From positions 1,922,001-1,986,000 of the forward strand of contig NZ_FQWU01000001.1 of assembly GCF_900129765.1 (NCBI RefSeq): a stretch of 64,000 bases of DNA. The letters are read 5' to 3'. This DNA is from Massilia sp. CF038 (GTDB lineage Bacteria > Pseudomonadota > Gammaproteobacteria > Burkholderiales > Burkholderiaceae_D). Made by a program: the position numbers and the translations under genes. Of this stretch, positions 471-14,783 are shown piece by piece. The first letter of the stretch is position 1, and every line of letters starts with the position of its first letter. The notes under the pieces were generated by a model. It made no database searches, was not told where the DNA came from, and worked only from the letters and a program-made list of their open reading frames with translations.

Positions 471-572
471 CCGACATTGGCGTGACATGCTGGCGCGGTT
501 TAATGCATGTGTGGACTGCAAAGCAGGCTTCATCCCGGCGCCGGCAAGCATGTCCCTCACAGGAGAACCACC

Positions 573-995
573 ATGAAAGTCACCTACCCGAAGCGCGCCC
601 GCGCAACCTTGCTGCTGGCATCGGCCTTTGCCCTCGGCAGCGCCGCAATGGCCCCAGCATCGGCACAGCAGCTCGACGCCAACGGCATTGGCCGTACCGA
701 GGTGGTGCGCCGCGATCTCGATGCCAAAAACGAGGCGATCCAGGTCCGTGTCGACTTTGGCCCGCACGCGGCCTTCGGCAAGCACGCGCACCCTGGTGTG
801 GAAATCGCGTACGTGCTGGAAGGGACGATGGAGTATGTCCTTGACGGTAAAGCCGTCACGCTCAAGGCGGGAGAGTCTCTGTTCATCCCTGCCGGCGCCG
901 TGCATTCGGCCCGTAACCTCGGTAGCGGCAATGCATCCGAACTGGCGACCTACCTGGTCGAAAAAGGCAAACCAATTCTGGTGCTGGCCAAATGA
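573..995 (+). CDS. Secreted small cupin-domain protein
   Basis: A 140-residue protein with a Sec signal peptide ending near SAQQ (residues 1-33) and a single cupin barrel. Cupin motif 1 is visible as GKHAHPGVE (His-x-His-x3-Glu metal ligands) and motif 2 as PAGAVHSARN (fourth His). It is therefore expected to bind one divalent metal in the periplasm; substrate unknown. ATG 573 was chosen over an upstream in-frame start because AGGAGA sits 7 bases before it and because the signal peptide begins there. Its stop overlaps the next start by 4 bp (ATGA), so it is translationally coupled to the thioredoxin-like gene. The upstream repeat array is shared with the bufferin operon, which suggests a joint stress response. 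Confidence 0.88.
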   Translation: MKVTYPKRARATLLLASAFALGSAAMAPASAQQLDANGIGRTEVVRRDLDAKNEAIQVRVDFGPHAAFGKHAHPGVEIAYVLEGTMEYVLDGKAVTLKAGESLFIPAGAVHSARNLGSGNASELATYLVEKGKPILVLAK

Positions 996-2083
996 GCGGC
1001 CCGCACAAAACAAAACGCATTGCGCTCATGGCGGGAGCACTGGCCGTGGCCGGTGCGCTGGCAGTGCCGGCGCTCACCGGCCTGTCCCTGGTGGGGGCCG
1101 CGCCAAGCGGCAGCCGCCTGCAGGTGGAGGGCACCATGGCCGGTTTCGACGGCGCCACTACCTGGCTCAATTCCGCTCCCCTGACCGCGCCCAAGCTGCG
1201 CGGCAAGGTCGTGCTGGTCGATTTCTGGACCTATTCGTGCATCAACTGCATCCGCAGCATGCCCTATGTGCGTGCCTGGGCTGCAAAGTATCGCGACCAG
1301 GGGCTGACGGTGGTCGGCGTGCATACGCCCGAATTCAAGTTCGAGGAAGATCTGGTCAACATCAATGCGGCAGTGGGGCGCTTTCAGATCGACTTTCCCG
1401 TGGCCGTGGACAGCCAGCACAAAATCTGGCAAGCCTGGGGCAATCGCTACTGGCCTGCCTTTTATCTGGTCGATGCACAGGGCAAAATCCGTTTCCATCA
1501 ATTTGGTGAGGGCGGCTACGACAAGATGGAACTGGCGATTCAGTCCTTGCTGGCCGAAGCGTCGGGCCGTCCGGGTGACGGCAAGCTGGTCAATCCGCAG
1601 GCTGGCGCCGAGCATATGGCGCCAGCCCTGGGCAGCATCGGCTCGGACGAAACCTACGTCGGCTACGAGAAAGCGTCCAATTTCCGTGGCGCGCCACGGC
1701 TGCGTGAAGATCGTTTGCAGACCTATACGATGGCCAATCTGGGCTTGAATCAATGGGCTCTGGCGGGCGGCTGGGTGGTGGGCGCCGAAAGCGCGGTCGC
1801 TGCCGAATCGGGCGCCGCGCTGGCGCACCAGTTCAGCGCGCGCGACCTGCATCTGGTGATGGGGCCAGGCGCAGCCGGTGCCAAAGTGCGCATCAAAGTG
1901 ACGCTCGATGGCCGCGCACCCGGTGCCGATCATGGCGCCGATATTGACGCCGAGGGCAATGGCGTGGTGGATGCGACGCGCTTGTACCAGCTGGTGCGCC
2001 AGTCAGGCCGCGTAAGCCAGCGGCGCTTTGAAGTGCGCTTTCTCGACAAGGGCGCCGAGGCATTTGCGTTCACTTTCGGGTAA
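992..2083 (+). CDS. Exported TlpA/DipZ-type thioredoxin-fold protein
   Basis: A 363-residue protein with an N-terminal hydrophobic export segment (about residues 8-36). A redoxin domain follows with the active site FWTYSCINC (C83-x-x-C86), and the continuation VVGVHTPEFKFE is characteristic of the DipZ C-terminal thioredoxin module. The last roughly 140 residues (GSDETYVGYEKASNF onward) match the extra beta-rich domain that follows the redoxin in that family. It likely handles thiol-disulfide exchange in the periplasm. It is coupled by a 4-bp overlap to the cupin gene. The length is normal for the stand-alone soluble version, which lacks the CcdA-like membrane half of DipZ. A perfect inverted repeat just after the stop separates it from the convergent bufferin operon. 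Confidence 0.88.
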   Translation: MSGPHKTKRIALMAGALAVAGALAVPALTGLSLVGAAPSGSRLQVEGTMAGFDGATTWLNSAPLTAPKLRGKVVLVDFWTYSCINCIRSMPYVRAWAAKYRDQGLTVVGVHTPEFKFEEDLVNINAAVGRFQIDFPVAVDSQHKIWQAWGNRYWPAFYLVDAQGKIRFHQFGEGGYDKMELAIQSLLAEASGRPGDGKLVNPQAGAEHMAPALGSIGSDETYVGYEKASNFRGAPRLREDRLQTYTMANLGLNQWALAGGWVVGAESAVAAESGAALAHQFSARDLHLVMGPGAAGAKVRIKVTLDGRAPGADHGADIDAEGNGVVDATRLYQLVRQSGRVSQRRFEVRFLDKGAEAFAFTFG

Positions 2084-2125: not shown

Positions 2126-2539
2126 TCATCGTTTCAAGGCAGCGTCCAGTGACACGGCGCCAGCGCCACGCCCAATCAGGGGCAGCAGCAAGGCCATCCA
2201 GCTTAAATGAGTCGGCCAGGCTGCCGGATACACAAACACCTGGATCACCGCCGTCATTCCCAGCAGGCCCAGCGCCGCGCTACGTGTAAACAGTCCGATC
2301 ACCAGAAGCAGGGGCAGCAGATGCTCGGCCCCCGTTGCCAGCTGCGCTGCCAACTCGGGGGCGATCAAGGGCAAGGCGTATTCTGAACTGAACAAATCAT
2401 AGGTGGCGGGCTTGATGGTCATCAGGCCCTCCACTTTGGTGCGCCCGGACAGAAAGAAGATCGAGGCGGCCGACACTCTGGCCAGTAAAAGCAGGGCCGA
2501 AGTCGGGATCAAGTGGTCGGGAAGGGTAATTGGTTTCAT
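2126..2539 (-). CDS. DoxX-family membrane protein, terminal gene of the bufferin operon
   Basis: A 137-residue protein with four predicted membrane segments (around [51 protein letters not shown] and [12 protein letters not shown]). DoxX members are common last genes of bufferin operons (sometimes called bufD), where they are proposed to supply a quinone- or thiol-linked membrane step. ATG 2539 starts the conserved part; an in-frame ATG at 2578 would add 13 residues and overlap the hydrolase gene. Neither start has a strong Shine-Dalgarno sequence, so coupling to the upstream gene is likely. The family assignment is solid; the exact role is not known. Confidence 0.82.
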
Positions 2540-2565
2540 GGTGGCTCGCACGATCAAGGGTAAGT

Positions 2566-3546
2566 TCAAGTGCGCCATACGGCAGCGCGTGTCACGCCGA
2601 GAACGGCGTCGGCAAATGCTTGTGGTGCTTCACGGGGTAAATCGTGTCCGGCAGCGGCGATATGCAGCACGCGGCTCTGCGCCAAGCGCGCCGGCTGGCG
2701 TGCGCTGGCGCCGCCTTCGAGTGCGATGACCGGAACGGTCGGCGCTTTGCGCGCCGCCACGGTCAGTTCGGCCTTGACGTAGCGGGGATCAGGATCGGCA
2801 TTGCCGAAGCGATAGCGCCAGGCATGCAGGACTGTCTCGATAAAATCGGGGTTGTCGAAGCTGGCAGCAGCTTGCGCAAACGCGGCTTCGTCCATTCGGC
2901 CATCGCGGTTTGCATGGCGCCACACCTCTCGCATCACGCCAATGCGGTTGGTTTGCAAGGCCTGCCGTCCGCGTTCCGTCTGAAAGTAGAACTGGTGCCA
3001 CAGCGCCGCCTCGGCCGCCGGGGCCAGGGGCGTGGTGGCTGCGGCCGCGTCGTCGATGCCTTCGTTATTGGCAAGCACAAGCCCAACGCAGCGACTGGGG
3101 CGCAGCGCGGCCATTGCGCATGCAGCGCTCGCCCCCCACCCGAAACCGGCAAACACTGCTTCCGGAATGTGGAGCGCATCGATCAGGTCGAGCAAATCAC
3201 GCCCGAGCGCGGCCTGCTGGCCGGAGCGCGGCGTAGCCTCGCTGCGATAGCGGGTGGCACCGTGGCCGCGCAGGGACGGAACGATCACGCGCAGGCCCGC
3301 GTCGGCCAATATCCCAGCGGCCGCGGCGAAGCTCCGGATGTCGTAACCCAGATCATGGACAAGTACGACCGGGCGCCCATGCTCCGGGCCCAGAATCGCG
3401 CACGAAATGGCCAGTGTGTCGGTGTTCACCTGCTGAACCTGCAACCCGGGCAGCGCGACTGCGCCGAGCGCCCCTTTCGCCGCGGCCAGGGCCACAGCAC
3501 CGGTCAACAGAAATTGGCGGCGGCCGTTGATATGAGGACGGTTCAT
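2566..3546 (-). CDS. Tat-exported alpha/beta-hydrolase-fold protein lacking the nucleophile
   Basis: A 326-residue protein whose N-terminus [10 protein letters not shown] plus a hydrophobic stretch is a twin-arginine signal. The body follows the alpha/beta-hydrolase plan: [14 protein letters not shown] (oxyanion region), RGHGAT, the nucleophile elbow, and [12 protein letters not shown] (catalytic His, residue 301). The elbow reads [10 protein letters not shown]. Related proteins carry GYDWGG or GHSxGG there, so the Asp or Ser nucleophile is replaced by Gly136 (codon GGG, 3139-3141). The protein may bind rather than hydrolyse its ligand. It starts inside the stop of the DUF2063 gene (ATGA at 3543-3546), which places it in the bufferin operon between bufC and doxX, an unusual accessory position. 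Periplasmic location is inferred from the Tat motif. Confidence 0.85.
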
Positions 3547-4325
3547 GCTGCTCTCCGGTTCGTGGGTGTGGCCGCGCTCTGCTCGACACCGATGATCATG
3601 TCATTGGCAAGCCAGTCCGCCAGCATGGCGCCAGCTCTGGCCACGCCTGCTTCCTCGCCCAGGCGTTCGGCCAGCAAGGCACACAGCGCGGTAAAGCCAC
3701 GGTGACCACGGGCTTTGTGGAGGGTCTCAAGTTCGAGTTGCTGCAGCCGGCGCAGGCGTGTACCAAAGCCGCGCCGCCAGATGGCGATGCCTTCTTGTGT
3801 CGCGAGCATGCGCGCTTCGGGCGCCGGCTCGCCGTTTTCGAGCGCGATCCAGATCTCGGCGGCGTTGGTGGCAACCGACGCCAGCGCCAGGGATGGGGTA
3901 AAGACCAGGCGCGCGCGCTCCCAGTTGACGCCGGCGAGCATGCTCGAGTCGACAGGGGCCGCATCGCGCGCAACGAAGGCAGTCGTCATCGCCCATTCGA
4001 TCCATGCCAGCTCGTGCAGGTCCGGGTTGTCGGGAAATTGCAGACGCAGCGTATCGACAAAGCGCTCGCCGTAGGCATCCAGCGTCCAGGCCTGCGGCGG
4101 ACGACGGTTGATGTGCGCGACGGCGGCGTGCTGGAACGCGGTGGCGCCGATGAAGCTTCGCAAGCGCGGGAAAGTCTGTTCCAGGCAGCCGGTCAATTGG
4201 CTGCGGTAGTTATTCTGATAGACGTGCAAACCGCCACGGGCAGTGCCCGCGAGCCGTCGGGCGCTGTCCTCATCGGCGTGGATCAGCCAGCTGCGCATCT
4301 GGCGCTGCAGGGTGGCCAGCTTCAT
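3543..4325 (-). CDS. bufC: DUF2063 protein, MNIO partner (bufC-like)
   Basis: A 260-residue protein of the DUF2063 (HvfC/BufC) family, recognisable from the N-terminus MKLATLQRQMRSWL, the helix text VYQNNYRSQLTGCLEQTFP, and ELAWIEWA in the middle. Members bind the precursor peptide and present it to the neighbouring DUF692/MNIO enzyme in the cytoplasm; older annotations call the N-terminal domain DNA-binding. The start at 4325 overlaps the bufB stop by 4 bp (ATGA) and its own stop overlaps the next start by 4 bp, so bufB, bufC and the Tat hydrolase are translationally coupled. There is no signal peptide, in keeping with a cytoplasmic modification step before export of the precursor. Confidence 0.88.
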   Translation of the reverse strand: MKLATLQRQMRSWLIHADEDSARRLAGTARGGLHVYQNNYRSQLTGCLEQTFPRLRSFIGATAFQHAAVAHINRRPPQAWTLDAYGERFVDTLRLQFPDNPDLHELAWIEWAMTTAFVARDAAPVDSSMLAGVNWERARLVFTPSLALASVATNAAEIWIALENGEPAPEARMLATQEGIAIWRRGFGTRLRRLQQLELETLHKARGHRGFTALCALLAERLGEEAGVARAGAMLADWLANDMIIGVEQSAATPTNRRAA

Positions 4326-5158
4326 GTTTGCACCATCGCGCCAATCTGACGCGCGGTATGCAGTTCCGCCATCAACTCTGCCAGCGGTGGAATGGCGGCG
4401 TCGCGTTCGATCATGGTGGCCACTGCGCCACAGCGGGCACGCGCGTGCGCGTACAGCGCCCAGACGGCGTCCGCAACGCTGCTGTCGTGGGTATCGATTA
4501 GCAGACCATCGCCGCGGCTGTGTCCCGCCAGATGGATTTGGCGCACCATCGGAGCCGGTATGCCCTCGAGGAAGGCGTGCGGATCGAAGCCGTGGTTGAC
4601 CGAACTGACGTACACATTGTTCACATCGAGCAGCAAGCCACAGCCGGTGCGCTTGCACATGGCCGCAATGAATTCCCACTCGTGCATGGCAGCGCCGGGG
4701 AAGCTCAGGTAGGCGGACGGATTTTCAAACAGCATGGCCCGGCCCAGCGTGTCCTGGGCGCGTTCGATATTGCTGCATACGATGTCGAGCGCTTCGTCAG
4801 TGTAGGGCAAGGGCAGCAGGTCGTGCGAATTGAAGGCGCCGATGCGCGACCAGCTCAGATGGTCGGACACAAACAAAGGGTCGATTTCGTCTGCCAGTTC
4901 GCGCAGGCGCGCAAGATAGTCGGCCCGTGGTCCGTCAGCCGAGCCAATCGACAGCGAGACACCATGCATGGCAACCGGATAGCGATCGCGGATCCGGCGC
5001 AGAATGTGGCGCGGCTGACCGCCGTCGACCATAAAATTTTCGGAGATGATTTCGACAAAATCGACGCCGACATCGGTCTCGAGAAAATCCTGGTAATGCT
5101 CGCGGCGCAGGCCCAGGCCATAGCCGGAAAACGAATCGGGTAAAGGAAAAGCCGGCAC
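4322..5158 (-). CDS. bufB: DUF692 / MNIO multinuclear iron enzyme (bufB)
   Basis: This is a DUF692-family TIM-barrel enzyme. In the bufferin systems that have been studied, it uses a multinuclear iron centre to oxidise Cys residues of the BufA precursor to thiooxazole-type groups. Visible metal-ligand motifs in order are MHGVSLSIGS, FVSDHLSW, LFENPSAY, LLDVNNVYVSS, IHLAGHS, DTHDSS and MIERD. An upstream ATG at 5218 keeps the frame open, but the stretch 5186-5215 in between is a perfect hairpin. GTG 5158 has GAGG six bases before it and gives 278 residues, the usual family size, so I prefer that start. It lies directly downstream of a bufferin precursor and overlaps bufC, which is the canonical arrangement. 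Confidence 0.9.
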   Translation of the reverse strand: MPAFPLPDSFSGYGLGLRREHYQDFLETDVGVDFVEIISENFMVDGGQPRHILRRIRDRYPVAMHGVSLSIGSADGPRADYLARLRELADEIDPLFVSDHLSWSRIGAFNSHDLLPLPYTDEALDIVCSNIERAQDTLGRAMLFENPSAYLSFPGAAMHEWEFIAAMCKRTGCGLLLDVNNVYVSSVNHGFDPHAFLEGIPAPMVRQIHLAGHSRGDGLLIDTHDSSVADAVWALYAHARARCGAVATMIERDAAIPPLAELMAELHTARQIGAMVQT

Positions 5159-5185
5159 GGTGGGCCTCGCATCAAAGTGATTACT

Positions 5186-5215
5186 CTGGTCCGCCGCTGA
5201 AAGTGGGCGGACCAG
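5186..5215 (-). promoter_or_regulatory. Perfect 10-bp hairpin between bufA1 and bufB
   Basis: CTGGTCCGCC and GGCGGACCAG form a perfect 10-bp stem around a 10-base loop, 8 bases after the bufA1 stop. There is no T-tract, so this looks like an intercistronic attenuator or 3' stabiliser that would raise precursor mRNA over enzyme mRNA. It also argues that bufB translation begins after it, at GTG 5158. Confidence 0.6.
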
Positions 5216-5222
5216 CATGGAC

Positions 5223-5489
5223 TTACTCTTTTTCGGTCAGGGTGCCGCCCAGTGCCTTGCACTCGGACGGTGTTTTGACCAGCACACCCTGGCCCTTGCA
5301 GTCGTTCAGGCCTTTGCAGTCGTTTTTGGCCGTGGCGCACAGGCTCTGGCCCTTGCAGCTATTGATGCCATAGCAGCGGGTGGGCTGTTCGGCGTCGGCC
5401 GCAAAGGCGGGGCTGGCGGCACCAGCAGCCAGAGCGAGAAGGGCGGCGGCGCCGGCAAGGCTGACGCGGGAAGTCAATGTGGTTTTCAT
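5223..5489 (-). CDS. bufA1: Bufferin precursor, Cys-rich DUF2282 peptide (bufA1-like)
   Basis: An 88-residue protein with an intact Sec signal peptide (cleavage after SPAFA, about residue 30) and a short Cys-rich mature part with six cysteines: RCYGINSCKG, SLCATAKNDCKGLNDC and SEC. The CYG-x-NSCKGQ and CKGQG texts are the hallmark of bufferin-1 type RiPP precursors. In the cytoplasm the cysteines are modified by the MNIO enzyme, and the product is then exported to the periplasm, where it sequesters copper. AAGGAG lies 8 bases before the ATG. It is followed by a strong hairpin and then bufB. It is small and acidic to neutral, with no membrane anchor. Confidence 0.93.
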   Translation of the reverse strand: MKTTLTSRVSLAGAAALLALAAGAASPAFAADAEQPTRCYGINSCKGQSLCATAKNDCKGLNDCKGQGVLVKTPSECKALGGTLTEKE

Positions 5490-5547
5490 GTGATGCTCCT
5501 TGATGGTGGTGAAATGCGGGCAGGTGCTGCCTGCCAGGTTGGGAAAA

Positions 5548-6321
5548 TCAGAATGTGTCCAGCGCGGCCTGTTCGATCACCTTGGCCACGTCCTCCGGCC
5601 GCGATACGTGTACGGCATGGCTGGCAGCCAGTTCGACCACTTTGGCGTGAGCGCGCTGGTACATCATGCGTTGCGTTTCGGGACTGAGAAAACGGTCGGC
5701 GCTGGCCACGATGGCGTAACTGGGCTTGCTGTGCCAGAGCGCCGCGTACGATGGCGTGCCTGCGAAGTCCTGGTACATCGGTACCTGCGAGGCGGCAAAG
5801 AAGCTGGCGCGGTTCGGGCTCAGATCGGCCCCGAAATCGCTTTGCCAGCGGGCCCGGTCTGCCCAGTAGACGCCGGACCAGTCGGGTTTGATAGCGGCGC
5901 CTTGAGTCGGCACGGCGCGCAGCAGCTGCAGCGCGTTTTCGCCTACCTCGGGCGCCAGCGCTGCCACGTAGACCAGCGCGCCAATCTTGGCGCCACTGCC
6001 CGCGTGACCAATCACGCTGCCGCCAATGCCATGACCGACCAGCACCACCTTGCCGATCTGCTGAAACAGGATGCGGCGGGTCATCGATACATCGGCGTCA
6101 AGCGAGGTATGGGTGGCCGGGACCACGGTCACGCGGTAGCCCTTGTGGCTGAGGATATCGTGCACGACGTGCCAGCTTGAGCCATCGGTAAAGGCGTCGG
6201 GGACGATGACAATATTGCGCGCCAGGGGCAGCGCTGCCGGTTCGGCGGGGGCTGCGCCGGCGAACTGCATGGCCACACTCAGTGCGGCAGCCGTCATCAG
6301 TTTGTGGGAAGTGAAAGGCAT
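5548..6321 (-). CDS. Exported alpha/beta-hydrolase-fold protein lacking the nucleophile Ser
   Basis: A 257-residue protein with a Sec signal (residues 1-28, ending near APAEP). The fold is that of EstC-like esterases: NIVIVPDAFTDGSSW, VVLVGHGIGG, LVYVAALAPE, ASADRFLSPE (acid Asp209) and AASHAVHVSRPE (His235). The nucleophile elbow, normally GHSYGG, reads GHGIGG, so the Ser is Gly98 (codon GGC, 6028-6030). The other two triad positions remain. It lies between two bufferin precursor genes, 10 bases after bufA2, so it belongs to the same transcript. The ATG at 6321 was chosen because it begins the signal peptide and follows AAGG; the longer upstream frame overlaps bufA2. A binding or chaperone role is possible but unproven. 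Confidence 0.87.
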   Translation of the reverse strand: MPFTSHKLMTAAALSVAMQFAGAAPAEPAALPLARNIVIVPDAFTDGSSWHVVHDILSHKGYRVTVVPATHTSLDADVSMTRRILFQQIGKVVLVGHGIGGSVIGHAGSGAKIGALVYVAALAPEVGENALQLLRAVPTQGAAIKPDWSGVYWADRARWQSDFGADLSPNRASFFAASQVPMYQDFAGTPSYAALWHSKPSYAIVASADRFLSPETQRMMYQRAHAKVVELAASHAVHVSRPEDVAKVIEQAALDTF

Positions 6322-6331
6322 GATGTCCGCC

Positions 6332-6601
6332 TTATTTGCGTGGCGTGAGCGAACCGAAGCCCTTTGGGGTCTTGATGGTGGTGCAGGTGCCTTTGGCCAC
6401 CAGGGTCCAGGCATCGCCCTGGTAATCGGTCTTGGAGGTGGCGGCGCAGCTGGTACCGGCACCGGCTGCACAGTCATTGTGACCGGCTAGCGAGACGCCG
6501 TAGCATTTCTCGGTTGGCTTCCTGGCTTCGTCGGCGTGGGCGGCGCCCGCGCTCAGGACCAGAGCGAGAGCGGCGGCAGCGGTGGATAGAGAATGTTTCA
6601 T
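6332..6601 (-). CDS. bufA2: Bufferin-like precursor, DUF2282 peptide of a second type (bufA2-like)
   Basis: An 89-residue protein with a clear Sec signal (cleavage near AAHA, residue 22) and four cysteines in the mature part: [28 protein letters not shown] and KGTC. The KCYGV-x-LAG-x-NDCA start and the YQGDAW middle mark the DUF2282 subgroup usually called BufA2, distinct from the CKGQG-type peptide at 5223. AAGGAG lies 9 bases before the ATG. It is the first gene of the bufferin operon, is followed by a hydrolase-fold gene rather than by its own MNIO gene, and presumably shares the single bufB/bufC pair. The upstream region carries the TGTGTC array. Confidence 0.88.
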
Positions 6602-6777: not shown

Positions 6778-8103
6778 TTACAGCGCCGTCAGGACGAGGC
6801 GCGCTTCCAGACCGCCTTCGGGGCGGTTGTGCAAAGTGAGTGTGGCTGCCATGGTGCCCGCCAGCTGGCGGGCGATGGCCAGGCCCAGGCCGGTGCCGCC
6901 GGTATCGCGGCTGCGCGAACCCTCAAGCCGGTAAAATGGCTCGAATACCGCTTCGAGCATCGCTTCCGGAATGCCAGGGCCCGTGTCGCAAACCCGAATC
7001 GTGCAGCGTTCGGGTCCGTCGCGCTCGAGCACAACGTGCGCAGTGGCGCCGTATTTGAGCGCATTGTCGATCAGGTTGACCAGCAGGCGCCGCAGGGCCT
7101 TGGGCCGCGCAGGCAGTGGCCCACCGCAGCTCCCCGACATGCGCACTGCTGCCCCTGCGTCGCGGTAATCGAGCACGATACTATCGAGCAGATTGTCGAG
7201 GTCAACCACTTGTGCCGGCTCCGGCTTGCCGTGCATGGTGCGGGCATAGCCGATCCCCTCGCGCACCAGGTCCTGCAACTGGCGCAAGTCGTCGCCAAAG
7301 CGCGCCTGCTGCACCGTATCGTCCATCAGATCGACGCGCAGGCGCATGCGCGTGATGGGCGTTTGCAGATCATGCGATATGGCGGCCAGAATACGCAGAC
7401 GTTCGTCGACGTAGCCCGCAATGCGGCGCTGCATGGCGTTGAGCGCACGCGCGGCGCGCACCACCTCGGACGGCCCTTGTTCGGGCATTTCGACGGGGCG
7501 CAGGTCGGGGCCTAGCGCATCGGCCACCTCGGCCAGGGTGCGCAGGGGACGGGTGGCCATGCGCACGGCCAGCCAGCACGCCAGGGCAACCAGTGCCAGC
7601 TGCGCGGCCAGCATGTAGGGCAGCCAGGGCGAGAGCGGCAAGCCGGAACGCGGGCGGAAGTCGATGGTGATGGTCTGGCCGTCGGTCAGGCGCACGTCGA
7701 CCTGAAAACGTTCGATCGGGCCCGGCACCGCGTGGGCCGAAAACGGATAACTGCCTTCCAGAGCACGCGCCGTCGAGGCAAGCAGGCGTGCCGAGAGCGT
7801 CGATTGCACGGGCGGGCCAGGCTGGGTGGGGCCCGCTTCGAAGCGGTAGGCCCCGCGGGCCAGGCGCGGCATCCAGGCAGGACGCTCGGCGGCGGGCAAG
7901 CGGTCCAGCAGGGACACGGCGGCGCGCACATCGACTTCGACCAGATCGATCATCGCGCCCATGGTGGTCTGGTCGCGTTCGCGGATGGCCAGGCTGACAG
8001 AAAGCAGCTGCGCGGCAGCCAGGCCCGCCAGCAAAATCAGGGACAGACGCGCGAACAGGCTGGCCGGAACCAGCTTGCGAAGCAGCGCGCCCGCGCCGCT
8101 CAA
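6778..8103 (-). CDS. Sensor histidine kinase (EnvZ-like)
   Basis: A 441-residue inner-membrane kinase. Two membrane segments (about residues 16-38 and 162-182) flank a periplasmic sensor region. A HAMP domain follows (about 183-235), then the dimerisation box [14 protein letters not shown] with phospho-accepting H244, the N box [13 protein letters not shown] (N347), the G1 box DTGPGIP and the G2 box [14 protein letters not shown]. All catalytic boxes are intact. The gene overlaps its response regulator by 4 bp and ends 177 bases before the first bufferin precursor on the same strand. The signal is unknown; the neighbours (Ohr, CzcE-like protein, bufferins) suggest metal or oxidative stress in the periplasm. 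Confidence 0.93.
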
Positions 8104-8840
8104 GGTGCGCCCTCGAGCACCGTCACGGCACTGGAAAAGACATACCCTTCGCTGCGCAGCGTTTTGATGTAGCGGGGCTCGCGCGCATCGTCACCAAGGC
8201 GCTGGCGCAGGCGGCTGACCAGGATATCAATCGAGCGGTCGAACTGGTCGGCGTCGTCGCCATGGGTCATGGCCAGCAACTGCTCGCGCGTGAGCACCCG
8301 CTGTGGATGGTCAAGGAAGACCCGCAGCAGACGGTACTCGCCACCGCTGACGGCCACCACCACGCCGTCGCGATCGAGCAGGTGGCGCGCTTCAGTGTCA
8401 ACGCGCCAGTCGCCAAACCCCAGCATGGTGGCCACTTGCGTGACCTGCATGTTCGGGGGCAGCATGCGCGTGCGGCGCAGCACGGCGTGAATGCGCGCCA
8501 GCAGTTCACGCACCGAAAATGGCTTGGGCAGGTAATCGTCGGCACCCAGCTCAAGGCCGACAATGCGGTCGGTTTCTTCATCGCGCGCGCTGAGCATGAT
8601 GATGGGGATGGCGCGATGTTTCCCCGCCCGCATTTCGCGGCACAGGGTCAAGCCGTCGTCGCCCGGCATCATGATGTCGAGGACAATCACATCCGGCGTG
8701 AAGCGCTGCAGCGCGCTGCGCATTTCGCGCCCGTCGGCCGCGCCCGTGGCACGCAAACCCTGCTTTTCCATATAGGCGCAAATGAGCTCGCGGATACCGC
8801 GGTCGTCATCGACAACCAGGACATGGTCGTTTTCGCGCAT
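8100..8840 (-). CDS. OmpR-family response regulator
   Basis: A 246-residue regulator. The receiver domain contains VLVVDDD (acidic pocket), VIVLDIMMPGDDG (phosphorylated Asp), LSARDE and DYLPKPF (Lys). The C-terminal winged helix follows, with the typical end RFGRSIDILVSRLRQ-like text (here QFDRSIDILVSRLRQ) and YIKTLRSEGYVF. ATG 8840 follows AAGGAG by 8 bases; an upstream in-frame ATG adds 15 basic residues without a ribosome site. It overlaps the kinase start by 4 bp and begins 16 bases after the ohrR gene, so it may be co-transcribed with ohrR. Direct TGTGTC repeats upstream of the bufferin and cupin operons are plausible targets. Confidence 0.93.
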   Translation of the reverse strand: MRENDHVLVVDDDRGIRELICAYMEKQGLRATGAADGREMRSALQRFTPDVIVLDIMMPGDDGLTLCREMRAGKHRAIPIIMLSARDEETDRIVGLELGADDYLPKPFSVRELLARIHAVLRRTRMLPPNMQVTQVATMLGFGDWRVDTEARHLLDRDGVVVAVSGGEYRLLRVFLDHPQRVLTREQLLAMTHGDDADQFDRSIDILVSRLRQRLGDDAREPRYIKTLRSEGYVFSSAVTVLEGAP

Positions 8841-8856
8841 CGGCGCTCTCCTTGAT

Positions 8857-9333
8857 TTACGCTGGGCCCTTGCCTTTGACGGCATCGATCAGATTGTTGC
8901 GGATCTTGACGATCTGCTGCTGCACCGCCGGTACCGCCTCTGGCGCCAGGCCGGTTTGCTCGATCACGCCGCGGCCGATGGCGCTTTGGCGCAGGCGGTG
9001 GCCAGCCTCGGTCAGCGCGACCCGGACCTGGCGCTCGTCTTGGCTGTCACGCCGGCGCCGCACATAGCCCATCGCTTCCAGCTTTTTCAGAATCGGCGTG
9101 AGCGTATTCGATTCCAGGAACAGCTTTTCACCCAGGCTGCTGACGGTTTGTTCGTCCTCTTCCCACAGCGCGATGATGGCAATGTACTGGGTATAGGTCA
9201 GGCCCAGCTCTTCAAGGAGCGGCTTGTATGCCTTGTTGAGCGCGAGGTTGGCCGAATAGATCGCGAAACACAAAAAATCCGACAACTTCCTCACGCCCGG
9301 GTCGCCCGGCTGCACACGATCGCTGTTTTTCAT
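8857..9333 (-). CDS. ohrR: MarR-family organic-hydroperoxide sensor OhrR
   Basis: A 158-residue winged-helix repressor. The segment [19 protein letters not shown] contains the N-terminal reactive cysteine (C22) at the position conserved in OhrR; its oxidation by organic peroxides releases DNA. The wing text [20 protein letters not shown] is typical. ATG 9333 has AAGGAG 6 bases upstream. The target gene ohr lies on the same strand about 1.6 kb upstream, separated by a transporter and a CzcE-like gene, so ohr, czcE-like, MFS and ohrR may form one peroxide-induced transcript. Confidence 0.92.
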
Positions 9334-9407
9334 GCTGGTCTCCTTGCAGTGCATCTTGTCTGTGCGCCGATTATATGTCGAACCCGATTGATTCAGCATG
9401 CTTGATT

Positions 9408-12281: not shown

Positions 12282-14783
12282 TCACTTTGGCAATTGCTTC
12301 CAATGCTGCATGAGCTTGCGCAGCGCTTCCGGCTTGTTGAGCGGGGTGAAGCCACCGGCCTGATCCTTGGAATTGAGTCCGTGACACGAGGCGCAGGTGC
12401 GGATCTCGCCAGGCTGGAAGGTAAGCCAGTTGCGTTCGCGTACCACGGCTTTGCCAGCCGCGTCGGTCAGCTGCCAGGTCATGGCGCGCCGCGCCGGCAC
12501 AAAGGCCGCGCTGGAGCCATCCAGTCCCAGCTTGACGCTGCCGGCAGGGCCGCCAGTGCCAGTCGGATTTTTCACCTTCGGATCGTGCATGGTCTGCGCC
12601 AGTGGCCGCCGGCCCTCGCGCGGGGCGTTCACGCCACCATAGCCGCGGATCTGGTCGGCCTGGAACAGCTGCAAGTGGCTGATGTCATACACTTTGCCGT
12701 TGTCGCCTTTTTTGCTCACGCCGCCTGGCACTTGCAGATTGAACGGTTGCTGGCGCTCGCCGCGGTCACGGCTGGTGTTGTCGCGCGTAACGATCAAGGC
12801 CAGGTCGTTCGAAGTGAGCCAGGCGCGCAGCTGCGCTTCGTCCACGTTTTCTTCCAGCAGAACGGCCCGCTCCGGCGCTTCCAGTGCATCGCTGCGGCGC
12901 GACGGTTTCGCGCGCGGCATCACTTCGACCGGGTCGAGTTCCCACAAAATGCCGTCAAAGTCGACACGCGCATCCGGGTCCCAGTACCACAGCGCCTTGC
13001 GCGTACCAGCGGTCAACGCGCGGTCAGCCACAAAATGAACGCCGCTTGGCTTCATCGATTTCAGACGGAACTGGTAACGATAGCGCGGCGCCGCGCGGGT
13101 GCCTTCGTTCTGGTCAAGCCGGGTCTCGGCCGTGTGCACCGCCACCAGGGCGCCGTCAGCCATCGGCAGGGGATTGCGGTACATGCCGCTGTGGCTGGCC
13201 GCGGGCGTGCCGCCTTCTGCAGTAAAGCCGGCCGTATCAGGATGGGTCACGGCGGTGACGATCATGGTCTCGGCGTTCAGTGTTGGGCTGCCGGTAAAGC
13301 GTACGATCTGATTGGCGCCGGCAGTGCCGAATTCACGCACGTTGCTGCCGTAGTAGGTGCCGGGCTGGAGCGGGTCTTCGCGCAGATGGAACAGGCCGCC
13401 GTCCGAACGCAGCAAGGTGCGGTTGGCAAAGACGGATTCACGGCTGAATTCCAGCAGACTCGGGTCGTTGTTAAACGCGCGCGGGATGTAGCTTGGGCCG
13501 ATTTCATGGCGCCCCACGTGGTTCAGCGTTTCTTCCGATGTGCCGTCTTCATTGACTTGCCATGGCATGAAATGGTTGAAGGTGTGGCCGTTGGCGTGGT
13601 TGGCGACGTTGCTTGGGTGGTTGTCCAGGCGCGGCTCGGGGAACACTTCGTCGGCCAGTGCCTTGCGCGCGGCGGCCGCGCTTTCGTCGGCGTACAAAAA
13701 GGCGCCATTGGGCGGACTGGCCGGGTTGGCGCGGTCGGCGTCGGCCTGCTGGTCCTGCTGCAGGTGATCCCAGCGGGTGAAAATCACCCGTCCAAAGCTG
13801 TCCACCGACGGGCTGAAGGCGCCGCTGACGGTGTGATTGAGCAGGAACAGATTGCCGCTGGCCGGATCCAGGCTCCAGATCCCGGTCACGATCGGGAAGC
13901 TTTCGTATTCATCGAGCTGCGGGTAGAGATGCGCTTCGCCACCGCGCGGACGGTCCGAGGTAAACAAGACCCGTTCATCGCTGCCGTAAAAAGGCGAGAC
14001 GTTGTTGTACGCAGGCTGGCGCGCGATCTTGGCGATGCGTGCAGTGGCGCCTTTTTCCAGGCCGCTCACTTCATATACTTGCCACTGATACTGGCGCACT
14101 TCGTACTGGGTGGCGGGCGAACCGACGACCATGCTGAACAGGGCCTTGCTGCCGCTCCAGTGCACCGAGGGCTCGCGCACCGCGATTGCGTTGGCGCCCT
14201 GGAACCCGGCGCTGCCGAAGCCGGCTTCCTGGGTCAGATTGCGCGTACTGCCGTCGGGGTAGCGGATCATCAGGTCGCCGCCGCGCGGCACCGCCGTCGG
14301 ACTGGCCAGATGATTGCCAAAGGTGGTGGTGCGGCTGGCAAAGCCCGACACCGGGGTCTGGGTCACATAAAGAATAGGATTGCTGCCAACGGCCACCGGT
14401 GCCGCCACGGTCACGGTGGTACTGGCAGTCTTGCTGCCACTGGCGTTGGTGGCGGTCAGGGTATAGGTGACCCCGGCCGCAGCCGTCACCGCTTTGCTGC
14501 TGCCGGTAACCACGCCGATGCCCTGGTCAATCGAGATCGCCGTTGCGCCAGTGACGTTCCAGGTCAGGGCAAAACTCTGACCGGCACTGACAATGGCCGG
14601 ATCGGCGCCAAAACTGGCAATTACGGGAGCCACACCCTGAGGCGGGGTTGGATTGGTGCCTGGTGTGGGTGTCGGTGCCGGAGTTGGCGTTGGCGTGGAG
14701 GGGCTTCCACCACCGCTGCCGCCTCAGGCGGCCAGGGTACAGAGAATCAGGCAGGTGAGCAGGCGTTGCGGGTAACGGACCAT
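12282..14783 (-). CDS. HzsA-related PD40/cytochrome c lipoprotein with in-frame TGA at the lipobox Cys
   Basis: The frame reads MVRYPQRLLTCLILCTLAA, then TGA (14724-14726), then GGSGGGSPSTP and a long open frame to 12282. Codon 20 is exactly where a lipoprotein signal peptide (LAAC) needs cysteine, so a TGC or TGT codon has become TGA. The mature part has a Pro/Thr linker, an Ig-like domain (APVIASFGADPAIVSAGQS onward), a beta-propeller (PD40-like, DERVLFTSDRPRGG) related to the hydrazine synthase alpha-subunit family, and one C-terminal haem site TCASCHG. Without readthrough, a GTG at 14633 would give a product of 783 residues with no export signal, which could not receive haem. It may be a recent nonsense mutation, a sequencing error or, less likely, a selenocysteine codon. 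Confidence 0.8.

What the first reader, a model, noticed from the sequence alone, without database searches (positions are those of the whole stretch)
2566..6601. Bufferin locus carries two alpha/beta-hydrolase-fold proteins that both lack the catalytic nucleophile
Seen: the operon bufA2 - hydrolase - bufA1 - bufB - bufC - hydrolase - doxX encodes two exported hydrolase-fold proteins, one Sec and one Tat. Their nucleophile elbows read GHGIGG (Gly98, codon 6028-6030) and AGFGWGA (Gly136, codon 3139-3141), while the catalytic His, and in one the acid, remain. Known: DUF692/MNIO plus DUF2063 plus DUF2282 peptides are copper-responsive bufferin systems. Inferred: the same loss in two unrelated subfamilies in one operon suggests a shared non-hydrolytic role, for example binding the modified peptide or a thiooxazole-copper complex.
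Basis: partly seen in the sequence, partly recalled or inferred. Interest (0 to 1): 0.8.

Follow-up and report, generated by a model that had tools for sequence, protein, structure and literature searches.

The report
Bufferin loci with nucleophile-less hydrolase partners
A group of bacterial gene clusters that make copper-binding peptides also carries an enzyme-like protein that has repeatedly lost its key catalytic residue yet is kept by selection, so its job there probably does not need ordinary hydrolysis.

Summary
In detail: both exported hydrolase-fold proteins of the window have Gly where the nucleophile should be. Comparison with 80 named loci (the best 80 of 298 relatives) and 14 loci of the window's family splits the story in two.

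ABH1 (Sec type) is a regular part of one bufferin subtype: found in 76 of 84 distinct loci, nucleophile Ser in 48, Gly in 19, Asp in 9. A single origin of the non-Ser forms is rejected (p-AU 0.00012). Acid and His are kept in 74 of 74 rows examined, 28 of 28 non-Ser rows; 57 of 58 relatives outside these loci have Ser. Non-Ser copies stay under purifying selection. The loss is thus recurrent and nearly confined to bufferin-linked members, but not their rule.

ABH2 (Tat type) is an optional epoxide-hydrolase-like gene: 20 intact-type, 8 degenerate, 21 shrunken by half, 34 absent. Its state shows no association with ABH1's, in a test without power, so "shared loss, shared role" is not supported.

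Best reading: ABH1 does a periplasmic job needing its pocket and His-Asp pair, not the nucleophile. Untested at the bench.

The parts
6332..6601 (-). bufA1-type precursor (DUF2282), exported, 89 aa
   Evidence: PF10048 83.8 bits against cut-off 22.4
5548..6321 (-). ABH1: exported alpha/beta-hydrolase-fold protein without catalytic nucleophile
   Evidence: PF12697 61 bits; profile of BUF-linked ABH1 matches HNL/SABP2/methylketone synthase structures
6028..6030 (-). ABH1 nucleophile position, Gly98 (GHGIGG)
5695..5697 (-). ABH1 acid, Asp209 (kept)
   Evidence: aligned to the acid, D in 74 of 74 BUF-linked rows
5617..5619 (-). ABH1 His235 (kept)
   Evidence: H in 74 of 74 BUF-linked rows
5223..5489 (-). 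bufA2-type precursor, exported, 88 aa
   Evidence: NF050166 91.9 bits against cut-off 60
4322..5218 (-). bufB, MNIO maturase
   Evidence: NF050167 374.2 bits against 310; PF05114 363.6 bits
3543..4325 (-). bufC, DUF2063 partner
   Evidence: PF09836 70.1 bits against 27.2
2566..3546 (-). ABH2: epoxide-hydrolase-like protein with twin-arginine start, nucleophile and acid lost, His kept, ends in WRT
   Evidence: an intact relative (L109) matches PDB 5bov at E 9.9e-96
3139..3141 (-). ABH2 nucleophile position, Gly136 (GFGWGA; Asp in intact-type relatives)
2644..2646 (-). ABH2 catalytic His (kept)
2126..2578 (-). doxX/hvfX-like membrane protein (start perhaps 2539)
   Evidence: PF07681 58.4 bits against 23.6; NF050144 50.4 bits, under its cut-off of 80

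Best explanation
ABH1 is an accessory protein of a bufferin subtype that carries a bufA1 + bufA2 pair. It descends from Ser-His-Asp hydrolases of the hydroxynitrile lyase/SABP2 kind. At the bufferin locus its work no longer depends on the serine: the nucleophile was replaced by Gly or Asp several times, while the Asp209-His235 pair and a set of BUF-specific residues (Asp55, Gln132, Asn170, Arg171) stayed fixed. SHOWN: linkage, repeated replacement, retention of acid and His, purifying selection. INFERRED: ABH1 acts in the periplasm on the bufferin or a small partner of it, holding its ligand in the old active-site pocket and using His-Asp as a proton relay or polar anchor, not forming an acyl-enzyme. 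ABH2 is a separate, optional, epoxide-hydrolase-like gene that is being lost stepwise (nucleophile changed, then second half of the fold deleted, then gone) in many lineages, including the window's; what remains keeps an export signal, one core block and the C-terminal WRT, so a residual binding role is possible.
For: ABH1 in 76 of 84 distinct loci and directly before bufA2 in 70 of 71 named loci where both were found; two less related loci, with BufB about 54% identical, have no ABH1 or ABH2 match. Nucleophile Ser 48, Gly 19, Asp 9; at least 9 changes of state on the BufB+BufC tree, 7 between Ser and non-Ser, at least 6 and 5 on ABH1's own tree with the elbow columns removed, where one clade of all 28 non-Ser rows is rejected, p-AU 0.00012. 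Acid D and His H in 28 of 28 non-Ser rows; 43 of 246 core columns are invariant in those rows, so two named columns would both be invariant by chance in about 3%. Asn170 is fixed in 74 of 74 BUF-linked rows against 1 of 58 others, Gln132 3 of 58, Arg171 5 of 58, Asp55 12 of 58. Median dN/dS of non-Ser ABH1 0.12-0.29 in five groups, BufB of the same groups 0.12-0.19. The same search found no second ABH1-family gene in the window's genome at E 1e-8. ABH2: 20 intact-type, 8 degenerate, 21 mini, 34 absent, 1 undetermined of 84; at least 4 changes between full and mini among carriers; a 23-residue leftover in P. marginalis (L104).
Against: 48 of 76 BUF-linked ABH1 still have Ser, so in most lineages ordinary hydrolysis may go on and the Gly forms may be derived side branches. 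Non-Ser ABH1 evolves somewhat faster (medians 0.12-0.29) than Ser-type ABH1 (0.08-0.15), as relaxed constraint would give. Asp209 and His235 are also invariant in the 58 relatives, so they could be kept for reasons of fold. No structure prediction was possible (tool off), and no ligand, activity or export was tested.
Confidence: 0.5

Rival explanations
1. ABH1 is a pure binding protein or chaperone for the modified bufferin or its copper complex; the old triad has no chemical role.
For: Purifying selection without a nucleophile and BUF-specific fixed residues fit a binding surface; neighbours are a metallophore precursor and its maturation enzymes.
Against: Fixed Asp and His in 28 of 28 non-Ser rows is more than a pure binder needs, though not excluded for reasons of fold. 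No Cys- or Met-rich metal site was seen among the BUF-specific fixed residues (Met220 is the only such residue and is M in 30 of 58 relatives too).
Confidence: 0.25
2. Slow decay: ABH1 is an old esterase under weak constraint in these loci, and Gly/Asp forms are early steps of loss, as for ABH2.
For: ABH2 in the same loci clearly decays; non-Ser ABH1 has higher dN/dS than Ser-type; three distinct BUF-linked loci outside the Sphingomonadaceae lack ABH1 (L103, L152; L141 starts at a contig end), and one ABH1 is truncated (L101).
Against: 19 Gly and 9 Asp copies are nearly all full-length open frames (28 of 28 long enough to be aligned) with dN/dS well under 1, across at least 5 separate changes. 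Asp needs a second codon step beyond Gly (codons AGC/AGT, GGN, GAC/GAT), unlike simple decay.
Confidence: 0.15
3. The Asp forms are working enzymes with a swapped nucleophile and the Gly forms are stepping stones (Ser to Gly to Asp, single-base steps).
For: Codons fit single steps; one Gly row (L114) and one Asp row (L128) are neighbours in both trees.
Against: Gly forms are older and more numerous than stepping stones should be (19 against 9), with whole clades of Gly only.
Confidence: 0.1

Closest known systems
Bufferin biosynthetic gene clusters (Buf1/Buf2; MNIO + DUF2063 + DoxX), PMC12452194
   Same: Precursors, MNIO maturase, DUF2063 partner and DoxX match the described core.
   Different: Two exported hydrolase-fold genes inside the operon; the survey's main text uses 'hydrolase' only for peptidyl-tRNA hydrolase and says additional conserved genes occur in extremely low proportions. 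Its supplements were not available to me.
'Pep4' cluster of Pseudomonas fluorescens, eLife 2021, PMC8719888
   Same: Listed there as DUF2282 peptide, DoxX, hydrolase, short peptide, DUF692, DUF2063, hydrolase: the same gene set and order as in the Pseudomonas loci here.
   Different: The passages seen give a gene list only; nothing on nucleophiles, decay or role.
Hydroxynitrile lyase / SABP2 / methylketone synthase 1 group of alpha/beta hydrolases
   Same: Profile of BUF-linked ABH1 matches these structures (3dqz 2.4e-10, 1y7h 2.8e-9, 3stt 2.2e-7). In Arabidopsis HNL the triad His is proposed to act as general base (PMC3444685, abstract and passages).
   Different: Plant enzymes, not exported. 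Methylketone synthase 1 working without a serine nucleophile is recalled, not checked here; AtHNL itself needs its Ser (Ser81Ala under 2% activity).
Epoxide-hydrolase-like alpha/beta hydrolases (PDB 5bov)
   Same: Intact-type ABH2 (L109) matches 5bov at E 9.9e-96, with Asp elbow GYDWGG.
   Different: BUF-linked ABH2 ends in WRT (44 of 49 carriers; 0 of 25 relatives elsewhere) and is often degenerate or halved; the window copy lacks nucleophile and acid.

Membership tests
Bufferin cluster | MNIO maturase of the BufB family | tested here: met
   NF050167 374.2 bits against cut-off 310
Bufferin cluster | DUF2282 and/or BufA2-type exported precursor | tested here: met
   PF10048 83.8 against 22.4; NF050166 91.9 against 60
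Bufferin cluster | DUF2063 partner and DoxX | tested here: met
   PF09836 70.1 against 27.2; PF07681 58.4 against 23.6
Bufferin cluster | Thiooxazole on Cys and copper binding by the product | not testable with these tools
   needs expression, mass spectrometry and metal titration
alpha/beta-hydrolase fold (Abhydrolase_6) | Profile match over the cut-off | tested here: met
   ABH1 61, ABH2 44.3 bits against 26.3
Catalytic serine hydrolase (ABH1) | Ser nucleophile with Asp and His | tested here: not met
   Gly98; Asp209 and His235 present
Epoxide-hydrolase-like enzyme (ABH2) | Asp nucleophile, acid and His | tested here: not met
   Gly136 and changed acid position, His present in the window copy
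Hydroxynitrile lyase/SABP2/MKS1 group (ABH1) | Sequence kinship | tested here: met
   distant: profile E-values 1e-7 to 1e-10; window protein alone finds 8hfw (4.9e-6) and 9clr (0.0005)
Hydroxynitrile lyase/SABP2/MKS1 group (ABH1) | Same reaction | not testable with these tools
   no substrate known

The most novel reading that the evidence does not exclude
ABH1 is a new kind of nucleophile-free alpha/beta-hydrolase-fold protein that acts on thiooxazole metallophores (or their oxidised or copper-loaded forms) through a His-Asp pair, and mini-ABH2 is a halved hydrolase turned into an exported adaptor whose WRT tail docks to another part of the bufferin machinery.
Probability: 0.22. Interest if true: 0.8.

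Novelty: new variant of a known kind. Interest (0 to 1): 0.55.

Why it matters
Bufferins are described as a four-part system (precursor, MNIO, DUF2063, DoxX). If ABH1 is a true partner, a periplasmic step after modification and export is missing from that picture. The repeated loss of the nucleophile in separate lineages gives natural mutants (Ser, Gly and Asp forms in matching loci) with which to ask whether the step is hydrolysis, acid-base chemistry or binding. The halved ABH2 is a case of an enzyme fold losing its second half repeatedly and still kept under purifying selection.

Tried and rejected
Chance or sequencing error: rejected, because the same state recurs in other genomes. One shared loss of both nucleophiles: not supported by the cross-table, and the independent-pair test has too few pairs to be significant either way. 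One origin of non-Ser ABH1 spread by transfer: rejected (quick tree, long branches present). WRT as a by-product of overlap with the next gene's start: in the window WRT overlaps the ATGGCGCAC that can start doxX, but in the Pseudomonas loci WRT is followed by no such gene and is coded differently, so it is kept as protein sequence. Remnants of ABH2 in loci scored absent: 29 of the 34 absent loci plus L141 were searched; only L104 showed one near bufC, and hits in L097 and L100 lie far away. Structure comparison could not be done. A text search for checkable precedent of a serine-less methylketone synthase found none usable. Numbering printed is 19 too high; one search gives the right one.

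Rows dropped: 11 family loci that are the same contigs as named loci (judged by equal contig lengths) before the 84-row tree; L101 (truncated) and L092 (my trimming error; its Ser, acid and His are visible) from the 74-row count. 'Relatives elsewhere' means not at one of the 15 close BufB places; for the 40 short fetched pieces the flanks were not read. All 58 come from the window's family. The 84 rows are the best 80 of 298 plus 4, so more distant bufferin loci are not represented.
Full report
Observation. The minus strand from 6601 to 2126 carries bufA1 (DUF2282), ABH1, bufA2, bufB, bufC, ABH2 and doxX. The genome has four MNIO matches and one ABH1-family match at E 1e-8.

Distribution. In 294 genomes of the family, BufB matches of 72% identity or more were found at 15 places in 13 genomes. 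Of the 14 such loci fetched besides the window, ABH1 matched in 14 (a fragment in L069) and ABH2 in 13, in six of them only over a short stretch. Two loci with BufB at about 54% had neither. A scan of the genome collection with a BufB alignment gave 298 relatives, of which the best 80 were kept: Massilia, Duganella, Pseudoduganella, Telluria, Cupriavidus, Paraburkholderia, Burkholderia, Caballeronia, Undibacterium, Pseudomonas, Dyella, Luteibacter, and five Sphingomonadaceae. After removing 11 duplicates, 84 distinct loci remain. ABH1 is in 76; it is missing from the five Sphingomonadaceae, L103 and L152, and L141 begins at a contig end. ABH1 is directly before bufA2 in 70 of 71 named loci in which both were found, the exception being L083. 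Of 72,556 plasmid records 15 hold a BufB match at E 1e-90; the one annotated record opened has an 'alpha/beta hydrolase' in the same place.

ABH1 nucleophile. Ser 48, Gly 19, Asp 9. On the BufB+BufC tree at least 9 changes among three states and 7 between Ser and non-Ser are needed; shuffled labels need 22-28, so the states follow kinship. On ABH1's own tree, elbow columns removed, at least 6 and 5, and one clade of the 28 non-Ser rows is rejected (p-AU 0.00012). Of 58 relatives of the window's family away from these loci 57 have Ser; the one Gly is a paralogue about 10 kb from the bufferin locus of L070. Fisher p is 1e-7, not corrected for kinship. Acid and His are kept in 74 of 74 rows, 28 of 28 non-Ser. 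They are also fixed in the relatives, so retention alone is moderate evidence: 43 of 246 core columns are invariant among non-Ser rows. Asn170, Arg171, Gln132 and Asp55 are fixed in BUF-linked rows and rare elsewhere. Median dN/dS of non-Ser ABH1 is 0.151, 0.287, 0.200, 0.124 (one pair) and 0.181 in five groups; Ser-type 0.076, 0.148, 0.082; BufB 0.06-0.19. So non-Ser ABH1 is constrained, a little less than Ser-type.

ABH2. Of 84 loci, 20 have the intact-type elbow GYDWGG (one of them, L152, with a broken frame), 8 are long but degenerate (seven with Gly, including the window; L103 keeps Asp but lacks the His), 21 are shortened to about 143-194 residues from the likely start, 34 lack it and one is undetermined. 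At least 4 changes between long and short forms are needed among carriers. The short forms keep a twin-arginine start, the block around LHIPEAV and the end WRT, while the cap and the second half with acid and His are gone. Their median dN/dS is 0.156-0.320. WRT ends 44 of 49 first frames (two end one residue earlier, two are broken frames whose second piece ends WRT, one is cut by a contig end) and 0 of 25 relatives elsewhere, all 25 of which have Asp at the nucleophile. In P. marginalis a 23-residue leftover remains. ABH2 therefore decays repeatedly. Intact-type ABH2 accompanies 11 of 48 Ser-type and 8 of 28 non-Ser ABH1.

Kin. A profile of 44 BUF-linked ABH1 matches hydroxynitrile lyases, SABP2, pyrethroid hydrolase and methylketone synthase 1 among solved structures; intact-type ABH2 matches a putative epoxide hydrolase, 5bov. 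In Arabidopsis HNL the triad His is proposed as general base, but Ser81Ala has under 2% activity (passages), so it is only a partial precedent.

Neighbourhood. In all 14 Dyella and Luteibacter loci an Ohr-family gene lies 42-75 bases before the bufA1 match on the same strand; two Ohr genes tested (L114, L134) pass TIGR03561. Ohr matches occur in 21 of 80 named loci and TlpA-like thioredoxin in 22; no background rate was measured. In the window an OhrR-like regulator (NF052638, 123.9 bits, under its cut-off of 200), a response regulator and a sensor kinase precede bufA1. This suggests, as inference, that the subtype answers to thiol or organic-peroxide stress as well as copper.

What is in print. 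The gene set is listed as 'Pep4' in a Pseudomonas paper (PMC8719888, passages). The bufferin survey (PMC12452194: passages and section 14) and two related papers (PMC13097082, PMC12538549: passages) do not mention such hydrolases in the passages seen. Searches found no paper on nucleophile loss in these proteins; the library lacks most subscription papers.

Verdict. Real, recurrent and partly new: ABH1 is a regular partner of this bufferin subtype whose nucleophile is replaceable; ABH2 is a decaying passenger or a shrinking adaptor. The function of neither is shown.

Noticed in passing
L097, L098, L100, L106, L121, L125, L130, L134, L136, L140, L143, L146, L157, L159: An Ohr-family peroxiredoxin gene lies 42-75 bases upstream of the bufA1 match on the same strand in all 14 Dyella/Luteibacter loci, hinting at organic-peroxide stress.
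   Followed up: partly
window 6778-9399, minus strand: An OhrR-like MarR regulator (8857-9399), an OmpR-type response regulator (8100-8885) and an EnvZ-like kinase (6778-8103) run into the bufferin operon; the kinase and regulator recur near 23 and 20 of 80 named loci.
   Followed up: partly
window 507-2083, plus strand: An exported cupin and a TlpA/ResA-like thioredoxin converge on doxX; the thioredoxin has matches in 22 of 80 loci.
   Followed up: partly
L070:1218-1949 (minus): A second ABH1-like gene with GHGYGG about 10 kb from the bufferin locus, the only Gly among 58 relatives outside the loci.
   Followed up: no
L070:11412-11576 and 12852-13016 (minus): Two nearly identical bufA2 copies in one locus.
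   Followed up: no
L104:11644-11712: A 23-residue leftover of ABH2 just after bufC.
   Followed up: yes
L101, L152 (ABH2), L101 (ABH1): Broken or truncated copies of the hydrolase genes beside intact bufB.
   Followed up: no
L129, L138, L154, L155, L160: Sphingomonadaceae loci have bufA1-doxX divergent from bufA2-bufB-bufC and no ABH1: ABH1 seems to mark the other branch.
   Followed up: no
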